Shown here: piece after piece, positions 16,206-21,115 of the stretch
How positions within the stretch are numbered: position 1 is the stretch's first letter
Layout: the number at the start of each line of letters is the position of its first letter
From: Cyclobacterium xiamenense
Lineage (GTDB): Bacteria > Bacteroidota > Bacteroidia > Cytophagales > Cyclobacteriaceae
Direction: 5' to 3'
Assembly (NCBI RefSeq): GCF_009467825.1
Contig: NZ_WIOK01000001.1
Coordinates: 1-64,000, forward strand
Length of the DNA: 64,000 nucleotides
Notes under the pieces: model-generated
Database searches by the model: none
What the model was told of the DNA's origin: nothing
What the model saw: the letters and a program-made list of their open reading frames with translations, nothing else
Program-made: the position numbers and the translations under genes

Positions 16206-16646
16206 TTATGTTGCTTTAGGGGTTGTGGTGGTTCCGAACAAAAATCCAATGGCTGCTAGAAACGCTCCTCCAATAAACTGTAAAACCTGCTGGTCTGCTT
16301 GTCCAGGTCTAAATACTAAAATACAAAGCGTCACTAATAATACAAGTGTTACAATTGCAGAAATACCTGTTTTAGTAAACATTTGGAGGTACCATTTTTT
16401 ATTTTGTCTATCGCCAATAAAATTAATTAATTCTTCTATTGTTGAGAATATTCTCACTTTATTGTCATTATCGACAAAACATATTTCTCCTTCTGTCTCG
16501 ATGTCATTTTCTTTTGCTTTTACAACGAGATAGTAGCCATCGTCTGAATTCTTAATATATTCAGTTACTCTAATATTTGTCCAGTTAGGATATCTACTAG
16601 TATACTCATTTATTACATTTTCTTTAGTTTCATTTAAATTAGGCAT
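16206..16646 (-). CDS. Small membrane protein, function unknown
   Basis: The 146-residue protein has a soluble, charged N-terminal part (residues 1-85, including YLVVKAKENDIETEGEICFV). Two predicted C-terminal transmembrane helices follow (GISAIVTLVLLVTLCILVF and an Ala/Gly-rich FIGGAFLAAIGFLFG). I do not recognise a family. The AT content matches the surrounding island rather than the flanking housekeeping genes. Confidence 0.6.
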   Translation of the reverse strand: MPNLNETKENVINEYTSRYPNWTNIRVTEYIKNSDDGYYLVVKAKENDIETEGEICFVDNDNKVRIFSTIEELINFIGDRQNKKWYLQMFTKTGISAIVTLVLLVTLCILVFRPGQADQQVLQFIGGAFLAAIGFLFGTTTTPKAT

Positions 16647-16656
16647 AATTCTTTTT

Positions 16657-16866
16657 TTAGAAGTAGATATTTTCTAAATTACCATGGTTCCTAAGGGCGT
16701 TTATGCTATCTGTTTCCTTGCGTATATACCTGAAAACCTTGTAGTTTTTGAACAGCAACATGTAGAGTAACCCAATAAACTCAACTTTCCGTTCGGCTAC
16801 CAATATTACTTTTTTTTCAAAAATTAATACTTTTTTCAGAAAAAATTCTTGGGTAATTTTCATCAT
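16657..16866 (-). CDS. Possible small ORF upstream of the membrane protein gene
   Basis: A 69-codon frame ends 10 bp before the next gene on the same strand. The peptide is rich in Lys, Phe and Leu with no recognisable domain. Short length, AT-rich composition and the lack of a conserved-looking motif leave its reality open. Confidence 0.25.
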   Translation of the reverse strand: MMKITQEFFLKKVLIFEKKVILVAERKVEFIGLLYMLLFKNYKVFRYIRKETDSINALRNHGNLENIYF

Positions 16867-17005
16867 TTACAAATTCGATTTCCCTATCGGTGAGAACTAT
16901 TGGGGTAAAATGAATATTGGCACCCTCCCCGAAATGGCTGATCATGTTGCACTATTGCAAAAAGGTGAAATTGTGAAAGCCAGACAAATTGAACTAAAAG
17001 TATAG
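16862..17005 (+). other. Gene scrap in the island
   Basis: An open stretch without a good start encodes a protein-like peptide (FPIGENYWGKMNIGTLPEMA..., then VALLQKGEIVKARQIEL) and ends at TAG 17003-17005. It reads like the tail of a degraded gene. The following 150 bases stay open in another frame. I cannot name the family. Confidence 0.3.
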
Positions 17006-17149
17006 CCAAAAAATTGGAGCAAAAAGTATTTGGGAAAAAGGGATCAATTTGAAATCATTGAAAGACTACCGGGAAACCAAATGATGGGGAATATTGATAA
17101 GTTAAAAATCTACCTTATTTTCAATTTGTGTTACAAACGTGTTACATCG

Positions 17150-17185
17150 GAAAACAAAAAAAGGATTACATTTCTGTAATCCTTT
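17150..17185 (-). terminator. Terminator for tRNA-Asn
   Basis: On the minus strand an 11-bp perfect stem (AAAGGATTACA/TGTAATCCTTT, loop of four) is followed by a T-rich tract. It begins 11 bases after the tRNA end. Confidence 0.85.
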
Positions 17186-17195
17186 GAATATTAGG

Positions 17196-17269
17196 CTCCT
17201 CCTCTTGGGCTCGAACCAAGGACCCTCTGATTAACAGTCAGATGCTCTAACCAACTGAGCTAAGGAGGA
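17196..17269 (-). tRNA. tRNA-Asn (anticodon GTT)
   Basis: Read on the minus strand: acceptor TCCTCCT/AGGAGGA, D arm GCTC...GAGC, anticodon stem TCTGA/TCAGA with loop CTGTTAA, and T arm CTTGG TTCGAGC CCAAG. Discriminator is G; CCA is not encoded. Confidence 0.97.
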
Positions 17270-17306
17270 ATAGTTGCGTTTTGAGGGCTTTTCCTTAAAC
17301 GAGATG

Positions 17307-17338
17307 CAAACATAACAGCTTACTTATTTTTTTCCAAA
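17307..17338 (-). promoter_or_regulatory. Promoter of tRNA-Asn
   Basis: On the minus strand TTTG (17338-17335) and TATGTTTG (17314-17307) are separated by 20 bases, matching the Bacteroidota TTTG-N19/20-TAnnTTTG consensus. The rest of 17339-17510 holds no visible gene. Confidence 0.65.
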
Positions 17339-17513
17339 TATGGGTGCACGGATTTTTCGTGAATTTTCCACCAATCCCAACTTGGGTTTCAGTATCAGCG
17401 AGTTAATTTCCATCGGTGGATCGGTTCGTTTGAGTTTTTCGGCTCGCTCCGAGTCACTATTGCCTTTCGCATGATTTTTTAAGCATCGCCCTTTTTTTTA
17501 CATGAAAAAAGTA

Positions 17514-17521
17514 TAAATTTG
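17514..17521 (+). promoter_or_regulatory. -7 element upstream of the tRNA-Pro array
   Basis: TAAATTTG matches TAnnTTTG and lies 58 bases before the first tRNA-Pro-like copy. The -33 region is T-rich without a clean TTTG. Confidence 0.4.
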
Positions 17522-17579
17522 CCCTTCCATTGCGGGAAGGAATGTTTAGCAATCCATGGTAGCATTTCTTTTAAAATCT

Positions 17580-17646
17580 CGGGGTGTAGCGCAGCTCGGT
17601 AGCGTGTCCCGACTTGGGTCGGGAAGGTCGTTGGTTCAAATCCGGA
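17580..17646 (+). pseudogene. tRNA-Pro-like copy, 3' acceptor lost
   Basis: The 5' acceptor strand CGGGGTG and the D arm are present. The anticodon arm is the 18-nt palindrome TCCCGACTTGGGTCGGGA (17607-17624), which contains TGG but is one base longer than a normal arm. The T arm is degraded (GTTGG/CCGGA), and no complement of CGGGGTG follows. It cannot form a mature tRNA. Confidence 0.75.
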
Positions 17647-17681
17647 ATGAAATTGAAATAATGAAAAGTTAAATAAAATCT

Positions 17682-17748
17682 CGGGGTGTAGCGCAGTCCG
17701 GTAGGGTATCCTGACAGGAGTCAGGAGGGTCGTGGGTTCAAATCCCAT
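17682..17748 (+). pseudogene. Second tRNA-Pro-like copy, 3' acceptor lost
   Basis: It lies 102 bp after the first copy. The 5' acceptor and D region match tRNA-Pro. The anticodon arm is replaced by TCCTGACAGGAGTCAGGA (17709-17726), which has no proline anticodon and no U33. The T arm GTGGG/CCCAT can form with a wobble, but the 3' acceptor strand is absent. Confidence 0.75.
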
Positions 17749-17784
17749 AAAGTACATTTGAAATATTGGCTAATTAATAAATCT

Positions 17785-17858
17785 CGGGGTGTAGCGCAGT
17801 CCGGTAGCGTACTTGCATGGGGTGCAAGGGGTCGTCGGTTCAAATCCGGCCACCCCGA
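17785..17858 (+). tRNA. tRNA-Pro (anticodon GGG)
   Basis: This is the only complete tRNA in the array. Acceptor CGGGGTG/CACCCCG, D stem GCGC/GCGT, anticodon stem CTTGC/GCAAG with loop ATGGGGT, T stem GTCGG/CCGGC with loop TTCAAAT, and discriminator A. CCA is not encoded (CGA follows). It lies 103 bp after the second broken copy. Confidence 0.95.
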
Positions 17859-17866
17859 CGAGAGTT

Positions 17867-17904
17867 GAGCCAGGCTGGGTTTCATCCAGCTTGGCTCTTT
17901 TTTT
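17867..17904 (+). terminator. Terminator of tRNA-Pro, abutting GIY-YIG ORF 1
   Basis: A 12-bp stem GAGCCAGGCTGG/CCAGCTTGGCTC with one G-T pair is followed by seven Ts. The next base is the A of the ORF's ATG. Confidence 0.9.
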
Positions 17905-18150
17905 ATGGAATATTTTGTATACATACTGTACTCTGCTTCGCTGGATCGTTTTTACGTAGGCCAGACCCAGGACCTTGAAGCGCGCCTTCAGCGTCATAAT
18001 TCCGGAAGAAATAAGTCCACAAAAGGAGGCATACCCTGGGAAATGGTCCATGTTGAAACCTGTGCGGACAGAACTGAAGCGGTCAGGAAAGAAACAAAGA
18101 TCAAAAACTTCGGAAGTAAACGGTACCTTCAGACAATCGGAAAACCTTAA
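17905..18150 (+). CDS. GIY-YIG nuclease, copy 1 (intact)
   Basis: The 81-residue protein is a minimal GIY-YIG domain. The GIY position is VYI (5-7) and the YIG position YVG (17-19). It has the conserved Arg27, His31 in RHNSGRNKST and the catalytic Glu63 in KETKIKN. Stand-alone members of this size (UPF0213/YhbQ-like) are common in Bacteroidota and their roles are poorly defined; related domains nick or cleave DNA. There is no ribosome-binding site, because the ATG directly follows the T-tract of the tRNA terminator. Expression would need readthrough or an internal promoter. It is the copy closest to the functional tRNA. Confidence 0.85.
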   Translation: MEYFVYILYSASLDRFYVGQTQDLEARLQRHNSGRNKSTKGGIPWEMVHVETCADRTEAVRKETKIKNFGSKRYLQTIGKP

Positions 18151-18160
18151 GATCCCAAAA

Positions 18161-18222
18161 AGTCCGGTAGCGTATCCCGACCGGGGTCGGGAGGGTCGTC
18201 GGTTCAAATCCGGCCACCCCGA
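18161..18222 (+). pseudogene. tRNA-Pro 3' fragment 1
   Basis: The match to tRNA-Pro begins inside the D loop (AGTCCGGTAGCGTA) and runs to the discriminator base. The anticodon arm is the palindrome TCCCGACCGGGGTCGGGA (18175-18192). T arm and 3' acceptor strand are intact. The 5' acceptor and D stem are absent, so this is a displaced 3' end, not a tRNA. Confidence 0.85.
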
Positions 18223-18230
18223 CGAGAGTT

Positions 18231-18268
18231 GAGCCAGGCTGGGTTTCATCCAGCTTGGCTCTTTTTTT
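18231..18268 (+). terminator. Terminator abutting GIY-YIG ORF 2
   Basis: Identical in sequence to the hairpin after the functional tRNA-Pro. The T-tract runs directly into ATG 18269. Confidence 0.85.
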
Positions 18269-18514
18269 ATGGAATATTTTGTATACATACTGTACTCCGC
18301 TTCCCTGGATCGTTTTTACGTAGGCCAGACCCAGGACCTTGAAGCGCGCCTTCAGCGTCATAATTCCGGAAGAAATAAGTCCACAAAAGGAGGCATACCC
18401 TGGGAAATGGTCCATGTTGAAACCTGTGCGGACAGAACTGAAGCGGTCAGGAAAGAAACAAAGATCAAAAACCTCGGAAGTAAACGGTACCTTCAGACAA
18501 TCGGAAAACCTTAA
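18269..18514 (+). CDS. GIY-YIG nuclease, copy 2 (intact)
   Basis: This copy differs from copy 1 by three bases: two silent changes near codons 10-12 and one Phe69 to Leu change (KIKNFG to KIKNLG). All catalytic positions (Tyr17, Arg27, His31, Glu63) are kept. It likewise begins directly after a terminator T-tract. Near-identity with copy 1 means recent duplication or ongoing homogenisation. Confidence 0.85.
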   Translation: MEYFVYILYSASLDRFYVGQTQDLEARLQRHNSGRNKSTKGGIPWEMVHVETCADRTEAVRKETKIKNLGSKRYLQTIGKP

Positions 18515-18524
18515 GATCCCAAAA

Positions 18525-18586
18525 AGTCCGGTAGCGTATCCCGACCGGGGTCGGGAGGGTCGTCGGTTCAAATCCGGCCACCCCGA
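18525..18586 (+). pseudogene. tRNA-Pro 3' fragment 2
   Basis: Same extent and palindrome (18539-18556) as fragment 1, again starting in the D loop and keeping T arm and acceptor 3' strand. Confidence 0.85.
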
Positions 18587-18594
18587 CGAGAGTT

Positions 18595-18632
18595 GAGCCA
18601 GGCTGGGTTTCATCCAGCTTGGCTCTTTTTTT
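18595..18632 (+). terminator. Terminator abutting GIY-YIG ORF 3
   Basis: Same 12-bp stem and T7 tract as the two upstream copies, ending at the ATG at 18633. Confidence 0.85.
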
Positions 18633-18908
18633 ATGGAATAGTTTGTATACATACTGTACTCTGCTTCGCTGGATCGTTTTTACGTAGGCCAGACCCAGGA
18701 CCTTGAAGCGCGCCTTCAGCGACATAATTCCGGAAGAAATAAGTCCACAAAAGGAGGCATACCCTGGGAAATGGTCCATGTTGAAACCTGTGCGGACAGA
18801 ACTGAAGCGGTCAGGAAAGAAACAAAGATCAAAAACCTCGGAAGTAAACGGTACCTTCAGATAATCGGTAAAGATTTTAACCCTCAGCAGCCAGGAAGCG
18901 TGTCCTGA
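18633..18908 (+). pseudogene. GIY-YIG nuclease, copy 3 (stop at codon 3)
   Basis: The third codon is TAG where copies 1 and 2 have TAT. The rest of the frame is open for 88 more codons and otherwise keeps the GIY-YIG residues. After the Ile of LQIIGK the end differs from copies 1-2 (KDFNPQQPGSVS) and the stop lies inside the next palindrome. No ATG follows until mid-protein, so a functional product is unlikely without suppression. Confidence 0.85.
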
Positions 18909-18950
18909 CAGTAGTCAGGAAGGTCGTCGGTTCAAATCCGGCCACCCCGA
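18884..18950 (+). pseudogene. tRNA-Pro 3' fragment 3
   Basis: The D-loop side is diverged (CAGCCAGGAAGCGTG). The palindrome is TCCTGACAGTAGTCAGGA (18903-18920). T arm and 3' acceptor strand are intact. It overlaps the 3' end of GIY-YIG copy 3. Confidence 0.8.
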
Positions 18951-18958
18951 CGAATGTT

Positions 18959-18991
18959 GAGCCAGGCTGGTTTCCCAGTCTGGCTTTTTTT
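18959..18991 (+). terminator. Terminator abutting GIY-YIG ORF 4
   Basis: A shorter variant, AGCCAGGCTGG/CCAGTCTGGCT with a TTT loop, followed by a T-tract ending at ATG 18992. The shorter loop accounts for the 359 bp rather than 364 bp spacing. Confidence 0.8.
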
Positions 18992-19267
18992 ATGGAATAG
19001 TTTGTATACATACTGTACTCCGCTTCGCTGGATCGTTTTTACGTAGGCCAGACCCAGGACCTTGAAGCGCGCCTTCAGCGTCATAACTCCGGAAGAAATA
19101 AGTCCACAAAAGGAGGCATACCCTGGGAAATGGTTCATGTTGAAACCTGCGCGGACAGAACTGAAGCGGTCAGGAAAGAAACAAAGATCAAAAACCTCGG
19201 AAGTAAACGGTACCTTCAGATAATCGGTAAAGATTTTAACCCTCAGCAGCCAGGAAGCGTGTCCTGA
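18992..19267 (+). pseudogene. GIY-YIG nuclease, copy 4 (stop at codon 3)
   Basis: It shares with copy 3 the TAG at codon 3 and the altered C-terminal end, so these two come from one mutated ancestor. It has a few private substitutions. The frame stays open to TGA 19265-19267, inside the following palindrome. Confidence 0.85.
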
Positions 19268-19372
19268 CAGTAGTCAGGAAGGTTGTCGGTTCAACTAGAG
19301 CGGAGCCTGACCTAAGTCAGCGCGTCCCGACGAGCATTAGGCCCGTAGGGGATAGCTGCTGGCTTTTTTTAT
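19245..19372 (+). pseudogene. Most distal tRNA-Pro 3' fragment, scrambled
   Basis: The palindrome TCCTGACAGTAGTCAGGA (19262-19279) and the start of the T arm are recognisable. The fragment is then interrupted by unrelated sequence containing another GAC-N4-GTC hairpin (19307-19320) before CGTCCCGACGAG resumes. The following terminator is reduced to a weak GCTGCTGGC-T7 remnant with no ORF after it. This marks the old end of the array. Confidence 0.7.
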
Positions 19373-19490
19373 TTCAGTCGGATATGGGAAAATTATCCGG
19401 CAATTTCCAGTATCGGTTACACGCTTTCTTCGAAAAATCGTACCTTAGAATGCGCCGAATAATTTCCTGGTTGGAATTTTTTTGGTGCGC

Positions 19491-19498
19491 TATTTTTG
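19491..19498 (+). promoter_or_regulatory. -7 element of the metallophosphoesterase gene
   Basis: TATTTTTG matches TAnnTTTG, 33 bases before the ATG. TTGG at 19471-19474 may serve as a -33 element at shortened spacing. Confidence 0.5.
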
Positions 19499-19531
19499 TA
19501 ACCAATCCAATACGTAACGAGTAAATTAGAA

Positions 19532-21115
19532 ATGGCATTCAAAGCAATTTTATTCTCCCTGTTTGCAGGTCTTAGCTTTCAATCCCTGGCACAGACCCTA
19601 GAGATCAAACCCTACCTGCAAGATGTGGAGCCGAATTCCGCAATTGTCATGTGGCAAACCTCCGAAGGGGAAGAAAGTATCGTGGAATGGGGCACCAGTC
19701 CCGAATTGGGTGAAAGCGCTTCGGGTACTTCTGAAGCGATCAATTATGACGATGCACGGGTTCATACCGTCAAAATTACCGGTTTGGAACGGTTTACCGA
19801 ATACTATTACCGGGTGCGAACCGGAAATGCGCGTTCCGATATTTTTCAATTTAAAACGCCTCCGTTTTCCAGCGATGGTAAAGATTTTAAAATCGTTGCG
19901 ATGAGCGACATGCAGTACGACTACAACCAACCCGATAAATTTCGCGAAGTGTTGAACGAAGGCGTCATCGGCTATCTTGAAAAAGAGTTTGGCGGATCCT
20001 TGCCCGATAACCTGGCCATGGTGTTGATACCGGGAGATCTGGTAGAAAATGGGGCTAAATTTTATCAATGGAAAGATCACTTTTTTAACCCGGCGGAGAA
20101 ATTATTTGCCCAAGTGCCGGTGTACCCGGTACCCGGAAACCATGAGCGCAATTCCGTTTACTACTTTAAATATTTTAGCTTGCCTGAAAACGGGACCCCT
20201 GCTTATGCCGAACATTGGTGGTACAAAGATTACGGCAACACCCGGGTCATTGGTTTGGACTCAAACGATGGGTACCGGGATTTGCGCGAACAATTGGACT
20301 GGCTAAAGAAAGTATTGGCGGACACCGAAAACGACGATAAAATTGATTTCGTTTTTGCGCAATTGCACCATCCGTTTAAGTCCGAACTTTGGATTCCGGG
20401 CGAAGAGGATTTTACGGGGCGGATCGTTAAGGAATTGGAACAATTTTCGACCAAAACGGGAAAACCCAGTATTCACTTTTTTGGACACACGCACGGATAT
20501 TCCAGGGGACAATCCAGGGATCACAAACATCTCTGGATCAATGTGGCCTCTGCGGGAGGGGCCATCGATAACTGGGGTGAATTTGAAGGTAGGGATTACG
20601 ATGAGTTTACCGTTACGCAAGATGAGTACGGATTTGTCATGGTGTCCATAGACGGCGATCGAAAAGACCCAAAATTCACCATAAAACGAATCAGCCGCGG
20701 CAATACCATTGAACACCGGGAGAACGAATTGAGAGATTCCATTACGGTATGGAGAAAAGAACGCAAACCGAATACCCCCGAAGCCATGTCGCCAACGGGA
20801 TCCGGGGTTTCTATCGAGGGGGCCGTGTTGAAAGCCGGTCCCTTTACGAGCGACTATACCGGTACGTTTCATGCAGCGTCCCATTGGCAGGTATCCAGAT
20901 CCATGGGGTTTGAGACATTGGATTACGAGAGCTGGCAACAATACCAGAATTGGTATTACAAAGAAAATCGGCAAAAGGACGATGACTTGACGGATGAAAA
21001 AACGGAGCGACTAGCTCCCAATACAAACTACTATTGGCGGGTTCGTTACCGCGATCAAAACCTGAATTGGAGTGATTGGTCAGCTGTAAGGACGTTTCAA
21101 ACCGACGAAAAATAA
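19532..21115 (+). CDS. Exported metallophosphoesterase with fibronectin-like N-domain (purple acid phosphatase-like)
   Basis: The 527-residue protein has a cleavable signal peptide (FAGLSFQSLAQ). A fibronectin/purple-acid-phosphatase N-terminal domain spans about residues 25-110 (IVMWQTSEGEESIVEWGTS). The calcineurin-like metal-binding motifs are AMSDMQYD, IPGDLVENG, PGNHER, LHHPF and GHTHGYSR. Two metal ions would be held by these Asp, Asn and His residues. A further C-terminal beta domain (residues of about 425-525) repeats the fibronectin style (NYYWRVRYRDQNLNWSDWS). The likely role is periplasmic phosphomonoester or nucleotide hydrolysis; the substrate is not known. Confidence 0.85.
   Translation: MAFKAILFSLFAGLSFQSLAQTLEIKPYLQDVEPNSAIVMWQTSEGEESIVEWGTSPELGESASGTSEAINYDDARVHTVKITGLERFTEYYYRVRTGNARSDIFQFKTPPFSSDGKDFKIVAMSDMQYDYNQPDKFREVLNEGVIGYLEKEFGGSLPDNLAMVLIPGDLVENGAKFYQWKDHFFNPAEKLFAQVPVYPVPGNHERNSVYYFKYFSLPENGTPAYAEHWWYKDYGNTRVIGLDSNDGYRDLREQLDWLKKVLADTENDDKIDFVFAQLHHPFKSELWIPGEEDFTGRIVKELEQFSTKTGKPSIHFFGHTHGYSRGQSRDHKHLWINVASAGGAIDNWGEFEGRDYDEFTVTQDEYGFVMVSIDGDRKDPKFTIKRISRGNTIEHRENELRDSITVWRKERKPNTPEAMSPTGSGVSIEGAVLKAGPFTSDYTGTFHAASHWQVSRSMGFETLDYESWQQYQNWYYKENRQKDDDLTDEKTERLAPNTNYYWRVRYRDQNLNWSDWSAVRTFQTDEK

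What the first reader, a model, noticed from the sequence alone, without database searches (positions are those of the whole stretch)
17785..19372. Tandem array of GIY-YIG nuclease genes interleaved with tRNA-Pro 3' fragments
One complete tRNA-Pro(GGG) is followed by four ~360 bp units. Each contains a terminator, an 81-codon GIY-YIG ORF and the 3' two-thirds of a tRNA-Pro, always cut at the same place in the D loop. GIY-YIG copies 1 and 2 differ at only 3 of 246 bases. I know no described mobile element made only of a minimal GIY-YIG domain and a tRNA 3' end. It may be a very small tRNA-targeting element.
Basis: partly seen in the sequence, partly recalled or inferred. Interest (0 to 1): 0.92.

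Follow-up and report, generated by a model that had tools for sequence, protein, structure and literature searches.

The report
Nuclease elements that tail tRNA genes
Next to many different tRNA genes across the bacterial phylum Bacteroidota sits a tiny nuclease gene together with leftover tRNA pieces, often in tandem, which looks like a very small selfish element that lives at, and rebuilds, the tRNA gene it occupies.

Summary
The array is real: tRNA-Pro(GGG) followed by four 359-364 bp units, each a small GIY-YIG gene plus a tRNA-Pro 3' fragment. Copies 1 and 2 are intact; copies 3 and 4 have TAG at codon 3. It is not a one-off. Of 111 related gene clusters in the host family, 80 lie within 300 bp of a tRNA and 13 more beside tRNA fragments. 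Phylum-wide it is 75 of 91 and 12 more, all 75 on the tRNA's strand. In the genus, unit number at this tRNA runs from 0 to at least 4. The nuclease tree follows tRNA identity more than host family. The protein is under purifying selection, and the tRNA-proximal copy is the one kept intact. Leftover tRNA pieces often carry palindromes in tRNA loops. Best reading: a free-standing homing-type GIY-YIG element resident at one tRNA, working like phage SegB and fungal mitochondrial mobile ORFs but belonging to neither. Cutting and movement are inferred; transfer between host families has little support. I found no description in the papers searched.

The parts
17582..17645 (+). tRNA-Pro 5' fragment 1 (about positions 1-63, acceptor 3' strand missing), with anticodon-site palindrome 17607-17624
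   Evidence: repeat families D2/D4, palindrome
17684..17747 (+). tRNA-Pro 5' fragment 2, 102 bp after the first, palindrome 17709-17726
17785..17859 (+). complete tRNA-Pro(GGG), presumed functional
   Evidence: ARAGORN; Rfam tRNA 59.2 bits
17867..17904 (+). terminator-like hairpin and T7 ending directly before the ATG of ORF 1
   Evidence: sequence; hairpin fold -25.1 kcal/mol
17905..18150 (+). GIY-YIG ORF copy 1, 81 aa, intact
   Evidence: PF01541 E=1e-15
18161..18223 (+). tRNA-Pro 3' fragment 1 (from position 14), palindrome 18175-18192
18231..18268 (+). terminator-like hairpin, copy 2
   Evidence: sequence
18269..18514 (+). GIY-YIG ORF copy 2, 81 aa, intact; 3 of 246 bases differ from copy 1
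18525..18587 (+). tRNA-Pro 3' fragment 2, palindrome 18539-18556
18595..18632 (+). terminator-like hairpin, copy 3
   Evidence: sequence
18633..18908 (+). GIY-YIG copy 3, TAG at codon 3; the frame otherwise runs to a TGA inside the tRNA fragment
18887..18951 (+). tRNA-Pro 3' fragment 3 (from position 12), palindrome 18903-18920
18960..18991 (+). terminator-like hairpin, copy 4
   Evidence: sequence
18992..19267 (+). GIY-YIG copy 4, TAG at codon 3; the frame runs into the tRNA fragment
19246..19331 (+). terminal tRNA-Pro 3' fragment; anticodon palindrome 19262-19279 and T arm replaced by hairpin 19305-19321; a similar two-hairpin end is seen in several relatives (L010, L011, L047, L160, L200)
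19333..19371 (+). T-rich terminator-like end of the array
   Evidence: sequence

Best explanation
The units are copies of a very small free-standing, homing-type element that lives at one tRNA gene. SHOWN: it consists of a GIY-YIG catalytic domain of about 80 residues plus part of a tRNA; in type A it sits behind the tRNA, often behind its terminator, and is followed by a tRNA 3' fragment; in type B a tRNA 5' fragment precedes it and a whole tRNA follows; a whole tRNA is usually present at the locus; nuclease lineages go with tRNA identity; units multiply and decay at the locus; the protein is under purifying selection; leftover tRNA pieces often carry palindromes in the loops. INFERRED: the nuclease cuts the tRNA gene (or a hairpin formed by it). 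Repair copies in, or tandemly duplicates, a unit that brings its own tRNA part, so the tRNA is rebuilt and the old half is pushed outward. The palindromes destroy the cut site and the fold of the displaced half. The gene is expressed weakly by read-through from the tRNA promoter, so the proximal copy is the one kept intact.
For: tRNA linkage: 80 of 111 clusters within 300 bp, 79 with a same-strand tRNA, 13 more with fragments only; phylum 75 of 91, all same strand, 12 more with fragments, the nearest tRNA having 28 anticodons of 15 amino acids. In a tree of 139 rows, an 18-row group of sister GIY proteins shows no tRNA link (the split itself has weak support, 57). Unit number 0 to at least 4 at one tRNA in 12 congeneric genomes, and a 4-unit array at tRNA-Asn in one of them with remnants or nothing in the others. 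tRNA amino-acid label on the 222-row tree: 53 changes against a shuffled mean of 125.8, lowest of 100 shuffles 115. Median dN/dS 0.141 over 83 non-independent pairs. Proximal copy intact in 43 of 46, distal in 23 of 43, p=1.9e-5. Palindromes p<=0.05 in 96 of 128 non-independent segments. T-run within 10 nt of the start codon in 77 of 136. Invariant Y6, Y17, G19, H31, E63, K67 in 21 rows. Weak PHROGs match to a homing endonuclease family for 2 of 4 proteins. Analogues in print: SegB cuts in tRNA genes and amplifies tRNA+segB in tandem (PMC13096335); mitochondrial mobile ORFs replace a gene end (PMC3630166).
Against: No cleavage, movement or expression is shown. Within one tRNA isotype, host families are largely kept together for Ser (8 changes, minimum 6, shuffled 13.4) and Val (4, minimum 4, shuffled 5.9), which looks like long vertical residence; Leu is no better than shuffled and Asp cannot tell. 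The whole tRNA shows no obvious protection from the nuclease. The protein has no DNA-binding domain and is not detectably close to SegB (hhalign probability 15%). Phage records gave no match, plasmids one. The palindromes are not predicted by a simple homing model, and 32 of 128 segments are not significantly palindromic. Fragment edges are spread over several tRNA regions rather than at one site. No clean before/after pair with identical flanks was found.
Confidence: 0.5

Rival explanations
1. Structure-guided element: the nuclease is a hairpin or branch cutter of the UPF0213/SLX1 type, and the palindromes and tRNA arms (which fold as single strands) are its substrates and ends, rather as REP hairpins serve RAYT transposases. 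Units spread through single-stranded intermediates.
For: Nearest solved relatives are UPF0213 and the branched-DNA nuclease SLX1. No DNA-binding domain. Palindromes in loops of the tRNA fragments, some inserted cleanly (Arg D loop 22|23; Ser TTG^AAA; T loop TTC^GAA), although several of the Ser and T-loop ones are imperfect. Stem pairing kept while the loop varies, 31 distinct forms.
Against: No biochemistry; no HUH/Y1 transposase in the unit; the palindromes are few per genome (0 to 11 and 0 to 20 sites in 10 genomes each) and some lie away from tRNA fragments.
Confidence: 0.2
2. A resident host gene with passive tandem duplication: a tRNA-linked nuclease gene was inherited vertically, and the tRNA 3' repeats make it expand and shrink by ordinary recombination, without any homing.
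For: Mostly vertical pattern inside several isotype lineages; direct tRNA repeats flank each gene; purifying selection.
Against: Does not readily explain many anticodons, two mirror arrangements, patchy presence and decay, or the palindromes.
Confidence: 0.2
3. The nuclease acts on tRNA or on invaders (defence or toxin role), and the tRNA pieces are decoys or immunity parts.
For: Each lineage goes with one tRNA identity; tRNA-targeting defence exists elsewhere, and SegB counters it (PMC13096335, passages).
Against: The defence library gave one weak match (E=0.0005 over 32 residues) for 1 of 4 proteins; GIY-YIG relatives with solved structure are DNA nucleases or of unknown function; the fragments have lost the anticodon.
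Confidence: 0.1

Closest known systems
SegB of T-even phages (free-standing GIY-YIG homing endonuclease at tRNA genes; PMC13096335: abstract, passages and section 10 seen)
   Same: Free-standing GIY-YIG nuclease just downstream of a tRNA on the same strand (in T6 the 221-aa gene between tRNA-Tyr and tRNA-Arg, 46 bp after tRNA-Tyr; the record names it serine recombinase, I take it for segB from its place and its GIY-YIG match); linked to tRNAs of many isotypes; tandem repeats of tRNA plus nuclease gene.
   Different: SegB has a long C-terminal part and is phage-borne; sequence similarity is not significant. Here: bacterial chromosomes, catalytic domain only, partial tRNAs, palindromes, lineages that go with one tRNA identity.
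Fungal mitochondrial mobile ORFs in atp6, atp9, cox2, nad3 (PMC3630166, passages seen)
   Same: Endonuclease ORF (GIY-YIG in atp9) arrives with a replacement gene end; the native end is displaced downstream.
   Different: Protein genes of fungal mitochondria, LAGLIDADG except in atp9; here tRNA genes of bacteria.
UPF0213/COG2827 small GIY-YIG proteins (BH0048, EF2693; the COG number is recalled)
   Same: Best solved-structure matches, similar size (E=4e-16 and 6e-14; fold).
   Different: Nothing in the calls links those proteins to tRNA genes; a sister group of small GIY proteins in these genomes is not tRNA-linked.
tRNA-integrated elements using tyrosine recombinases (recalled)
   Same: tRNA 3' part duplicated at the insertion.
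   Different: No integrase; the only recognised ORF of the unit is the 81-aa one.
REP palindromes with RAYT transposases (recalled; PMC3733652 and PMC12306157 seen only in the listing)
   Same: Short GC-rich palindromes tied to a small nuclease gene.
   Different: GIY-YIG, not HUH/Y1; the palindromes sit inside tRNA remnants.

Membership tests
SegB-type homing endonucleases | GIY-YIG catalytic domain | tested here: met
   PF01541 E=1e-15
SegB-type homing endonucleases | Gene located beside tRNA genes | tested here: met
SegB-type homing endonucleases | Sequence similarity to SegB | tested here: not met
   hhalign probability 14.9, BLASTP E 0.46
SegB-type homing endonucleases | C-terminal region beyond the catalytic domain | tested here: not met
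   81 aa, Pfam match 3-68; the model covers one small domain
SegB-type homing endonucleases | Encoded by phages | tested here: not met
   no match in 50,697 phage records; one weak match in viral contigs
SegB-type homing endonucleases | Cuts within tRNA genes and drives amplification | not testable with these tools
   needs protein and strains; more than one copy in 36 of 111 clusters
Intron-borne GIY-YIG homing endonucleases | ORF inside a group I intron | tested here: not met
   no intron family up to E=1 in window 16500-20500
Mobile ORFs carrying a replacement gene end | New gene end upstream of the ORF, displaced native end downstream | tested here: met
   type A anatomy; which end is new is inferred
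Mobile ORFs carrying a replacement gene end | Functional end is foreign, displaced end is native | tested here: inconclusive
   three T-stem alleles in the genus; in G068 a fragment keeps the commoner allele and the whole tRNA has another, but in G000 fragments 1-2 and tRNA agree
tRNA-integrating elements with tyrosine recombinase | Integrase gene in the element | tested here: not met
   only the GIY-YIG ORF was found to hold a known domain; other ORFs of the 360-bp unit were listed but not searched
REP/RAYT | HUH/Y1 transposase | tested here: not met
   the unit's protein matches GIY-YIG only
UPF0213/COG2827 GIY-YIG proteins | Sequence and size of the subfamily | tested here: met
   1zg2 E=4e-16, 1ywl E=6e-14; Foldseek rank 1 is 1zg2

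The most novel reading that the evidence does not exclude
A previously undescribed class of cellular selfish elements of about 360 bp, among the smallest with their own gene. One nuclease lineage per tRNA identity cuts and rebuilds that tRNA gene, shunts the old half outward, and marks the displaced half with a palindrome that removes the cut site. The class spans Bacteroidota and has reshaped tRNA loci throughout the phylum.
Probability: 0.4. Interest if true: 0.92.

Novelty: new variant of a known kind. Interest (0 to 1): 0.85.

Why it matters
If right, a whole phylum carries great numbers of tiny nuclease elements at essential genes, each lineage matched to one tRNA. It would give a cellular counterpart to SegB, a model for how a selfish gene can invade an indispensable gene by carrying a spare part, a reason for tRNA fragment arrays and for assembly breaks at tRNA loci, and possibly very small nucleases of new specificity. 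It is also a caution for annotation: these ORFs, and long antisense ORFs over the same units, invite wrong gene calls.

Tried and rejected
One-off local duplication: rejected, since 45 of 60 family genomes (G000 among them) have a relative, most of the clusters examined are tRNA-linked, and the same holds in the phylum sample. Group I intron: no Rfam match. Phage or plasmid cargo: no phage record, one plasmid record. Antisense ORFs (for example 18101-18652 minus) as the real gene: rejected, because the plus frame shows the Pfam domain and dN/dS about 0.14. Defence gene: one weak match for 1 of 4 proteins. Palindromes as abundant genome-wide repeats: not supported in the genomes tested, 0 to 11 and 0 to 20 sites per genome in 10 genomes each, but some sites lie away from tRNAs (12 loci looked at), so they are not exclusive to the element either. 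Transfer between host families: little support. A clean empty site: tRNA-Asn in G060 lacks the units present in G063, but the flanks differ.

Limits and dropped rows. The match lists were cut by the tool; their unlisted tails and one listed phylum hit (G124:C12) were not fetched, nor were the listed phylum matches after the first 60 clusters that I chose down the list. Three family regions fetched late are outside the tally: one cluster tRNA-linked, three without a whole tRNA (fragments not searched with the library). Four NCBI copies of G genomes (L046-L049) stayed in the first tree and were dropped from the second and. L241 lies inside L309: both count in the 91, L241 was dropped from the second tree, the polarity count, and it stayed in the dN/dS list. 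Three of 46 arrays that ran to the end of the held DNA were left out of the distal count. Copies with stops were left out of trees and dN/dS. One search was cut short by a lazy pattern and is replaced, whose pattern also caught T-arm hairpins and one or two chance matches. The comparison with native arms is not a fair control (shorter segments); its shuffles keep base composition only. The 'SeC' tRNA call in L125 looks like a tRNA-Met with a palindrome, by my reading.
Full report
CHECK. The window lies in a genome (G000) whose genus appears to be Cyclobacterium: three congeneric genomes have the contig lengths of C. roseum, C. salsum and Cyclobacterium sp. L10401 records. A complete tRNA-Pro(GGG) (17785-17859) is followed by four units spaced 364, 364 and 359 bp. 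Each has a terminator-like hairpin whose T-run abuts an ATG, a GIY-YIG frame, and a tRNA-Pro 3' fragment starting in the D arm. Copies 1 and 2 are open (3 of 246 bases differ); copies 3 and 4 have TAG at codon 3. In all four fragments the anticodon arm is replaced by TCCYGAC-N4-GTCRGGA. Two upstream tRNA-Pro 5' fragments, 102 bp apart, carry the same palindrome. The pattern TCCYGA-N6-TCRGGA is found 6 times in the window, all here, with none in 100 shuffles.

A PHYLUM-WIDE SYSTEM. With the 81-aa protein as query, 45 of 60 genomes of the host family (G000 among them) have a relative. Of 111 gene clusters in the 110 loci examined, 80 have a tRNA within 300 bp (79 with one on the same strand), 13 more only tRNA fragments, and 18 neither; 36 hold more than one copy. 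The 18 include two long genes and two contigs that end at the hit. Three regions fetched later add one tRNA-linked cluster and three without a whole tRNA. A profile of 21 tRNA-linked proteins (so this search favours that lineage) matched 73 of 118 Bacteroidota genomes. Of 91 clusters taken from these (L241 and L309 are one array held twice), 75 have a tRNA within 300 bp, all 75 on the same strand, 12 have fragments only and 4 have neither; for the one best hit of 29 genomes the figures are 26, 3 and 0. The nearest same-strand tRNA has 28 anticodons of 15 amino acids, or 31 anticodons counting every tRNA within 300 bp. A scan of GTDB contigs gave 31 loci, of which by my count 24 have a tRNA within 300 bp, among them one Ignavibacteriota locus with a fragment (L054). 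In a tree of 139 proteins, an 18-row group contains no tRNA-linked member, and the tRNA-linked rows all fall among the other 121. The split has weak support (57), though parts of the group are well supported; it serves as the control. I did not measure the chance level genome-wide.

ANATOMY. Two mirror arrangements exist. Type A: whole tRNA, often a terminator, nuclease gene, tRNA 3' fragment. Type B: tRNA 5' fragment, nuclease gene, whole tRNA. Of 257 copies with a same-strand tRNA in reach (1.4 kb), 198 were type A (140 with a detectable fragment) and 59 type B (47 with one). Fragment edges fall mostly in the D arm and anticodon arm, but also in the 5' acceptor, variable and T regions, so there is no single universal cut point. 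Tandem period: median 368 bp, n=77. For 136 type A pairs the gap from tRNA to start codon has median 41.5 nt; 103 have a T-run, 82 a hairpin of -6 kcal/mol or better before it, and in 77 the T-run ends within 10 nt of the start. In those there is little room for a promoter, so read-through from the tRNA is likely (inference). 37 of 126 type A tRNAs also have 5' fragments upstream. One genome holds an 8-copy array (G123, L309).

PALINDROMES. Where a fragment aligns in two or more collinear blocks to its whole tRNA, the segment between blocks is self-complementary at p<=0.05 in 96 of 128 cases (200 base-composition shuffles each; cases are not independent); 32 are not, among them several tRNA-Ser and T-loop segments with imperfect hairpins. 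Some are clean insertions at the same tRNA site in distant hosts: tRNA-Arg D loop 22|23 (L025, L058, L059, L060, L234, L265), tRNA-Ser TTG^AAA or TTG^CTA, and T loop TTC^GAA. At the Pro locus, 31 distinct hairpins (51 copies in 14 of 15 genomes searched, chosen by a pattern that fixes part of the stem and also caught some T-arm hairpins and one or two chance matches) keep the free stem pair as C-G (7) or T-A (22) with two mismatches, while the loop varies freely. The whole tRNA-Pro(GGG) keeps one anticodon stem-loop in the 14 Cyclobacteriaceae genomes listed. Such palindromes also occur elsewhere in some genomes, at 0 to 11 (TCCCGAT type) and 0 to 20 (CTGCC type) sites per genome, with controls of 0; of the loci looked at some lie in or near tRNAs and others do not. 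Their origin is unexplained. By my reading, the SegB motif RAWTSGAAC reported in PMC13096335 is the reverse strand of the tRNA T loop, which is one of the insertion sites.

DYNAMICS AND SELECTION. In 12 congeneric genomes the tRNA-Pro locus holds: G000 four units; G068 three (the last one short); G070 at least three and G065 at least two (both inferred across contig ends); G064 two; G060 and G063 one; G066 one, with another GIY copy 2 kb on; G067 one, with three solo fragments (across contig ends); G069 a broken one; G061 a 21-residue remnant; G062 no gene but a fragment. At the neighbouring tRNA-Asn, G063 has four units; G069, G064 and G067 have detectable decayed remnants; in the other eight no gene was detected, although G070 and G062 show short remnants by eye and G000, G066 and G060 show none (G068, G065 and G061 not inspected by eye). 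In arrays the tRNA-proximal copy is intact in 43 of 46 and the distal one in 23 of 43 (Fisher p=1.9e-5). Median dN/dS is 0.141, highest 0.536, over 83 pairs with dS below 1.5 (pairs are not independent, and some compare copies of one array).

TARGET IDENTITY. On a tree of 222 proteins, the amino-acid identity of the neighbouring tRNA (171 rows, 18 labels) needs 53 changes against a shuffled mean of 125.8 (lowest of 100: 115); host family (18 labels, skewed to one family) needs 67 against 83.6. The largest nearly pure groups join different anticodons of one amino acid: Ser 15 of 16 labelled rows (of 23 Ser rows in the tree; four anticodons, four host families), Leu 12 of 13 (of 16; four anticodons, five host families), Pro 17 of 18 (of 27), Val 13 of 15 (of 18), Met 12 of 13 (of 15), Arg 7 of 7 (of 17), Asp 6 of 6 (of 12), Lys 3 of 3 (of 3), Asn 3 of 3 (of 10). 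Against free transfer: inside one isotype, host families stay together for Ser and Val (0 of 300 shuffles as low), weakly for Met, Arg, Asn and Pro, not for Leu; Asp cannot tell. So the lineages look old and mostly resident. The tree rests on 78 columns and many forks are unresolved.

PROTEIN. Pfam PF01541 only. PHROGs gives a weak match to a homing endonuclease family (phrog_314) for 2 of 4 proteins, PADLOC one weak match for 1 of 4. Invariant Y6, Y17, G19, H31, E63 and K67, with R27 nearly so, the positions expected for a GIY-YIG active site (recalled). The AlphaFold2 model has mean pLDDT 94. The nearest solved structures are UPF0213 proteins and the branched-DNA nuclease SLX1, then I-TevI and UvrC. 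Similarity to T6 SegB is not significant.

MECHANISM. I favour a homing-type element resident at one tRNA: cut in the tRNA gene, repair from a unit that brings its own tRNA half, displacement of the old half, tandem growth by recombination between tRNA repeats, and decay of distal copies that are not transcribed. SegB supplies the experimental precedent for tRNA cutting and tandem amplification, and fungal mitochondrial mobile ORFs the precedent for a carried-in gene end. The palindromes would remove the cut site and spoil the fold of the displaced half. Cleavage, copying, expression and the role of the palindromes are inferred. The T-stem of the whole tRNA-Pro has three alleles in the genus and in G068 differs from a fragment of its own, which fits replacement of tRNA halves but does not prove it.

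NOVELTY. I found no report of chromosomal GIY-YIG genes tied to tRNA fragments in bacteria (listings in an open-access library; subscription papers are not covered, and only the top rows of the longer listings were shown). PMC1564403 (the GIY-YIG superfamily survey; passages only) mentions tRNA three times, none about this. Since free-standing tRNA-linked GIY-YIG homing nucleases are known in phages, I rate this a new variant of a known kind, with a real chance that it is a class of its own.

Noticed in passing
17582-17747: Tandem 102-bp units each holding tRNA-Pro positions 1-63 with an anticodon palindrome and no acceptor end; 5' fragments precede 37 of 126 type A tRNAs.
   Followed up: partly
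L217:925-1135 (G000 C18:263309): A decayed GIY-YIG start beside tRNA-Val in the window's own genome: a second, dying site.
   Followed up: no
L309:1489-4267: Eight tandem GIY-YIG copies at about 365-bp spacing in genome G123, beside a tRNA-Met-like fragment.
   Followed up: partly
L125:210-961: Tandem truncated tRNA copies with TCCGCC..GGCGGA; ARAGORN calls the last one SeC(tca), but it looks like a tRNA-Met with an inserted palindrome.
   Followed up: no
L203, L207, L210 (G067, G065, G070): Draft contigs break inside these tRNA arrays, so unit numbers in drafts are lower bounds.
   Followed up: no
17770-18288 and 18101-18652, minus strand: Antisense ORFs of 172 and 183 codons run over the units and could be mistaken for genes.
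   Followed up: partly
L200-L213, tRNA-Pro(GGG): The whole tRNA-Pro of one genus shows three compensated T-stem alleles while the anticodon stem-loop is invariant.
   Followed up: partly
L314:1390-1780 (G186 C77): Tandem 65-bp tRNA-Thr 3' fragments with TCCCGATTTTAATCGGGA and no GIY-YIG gene in the 3-kb locus.
   Followed up: no
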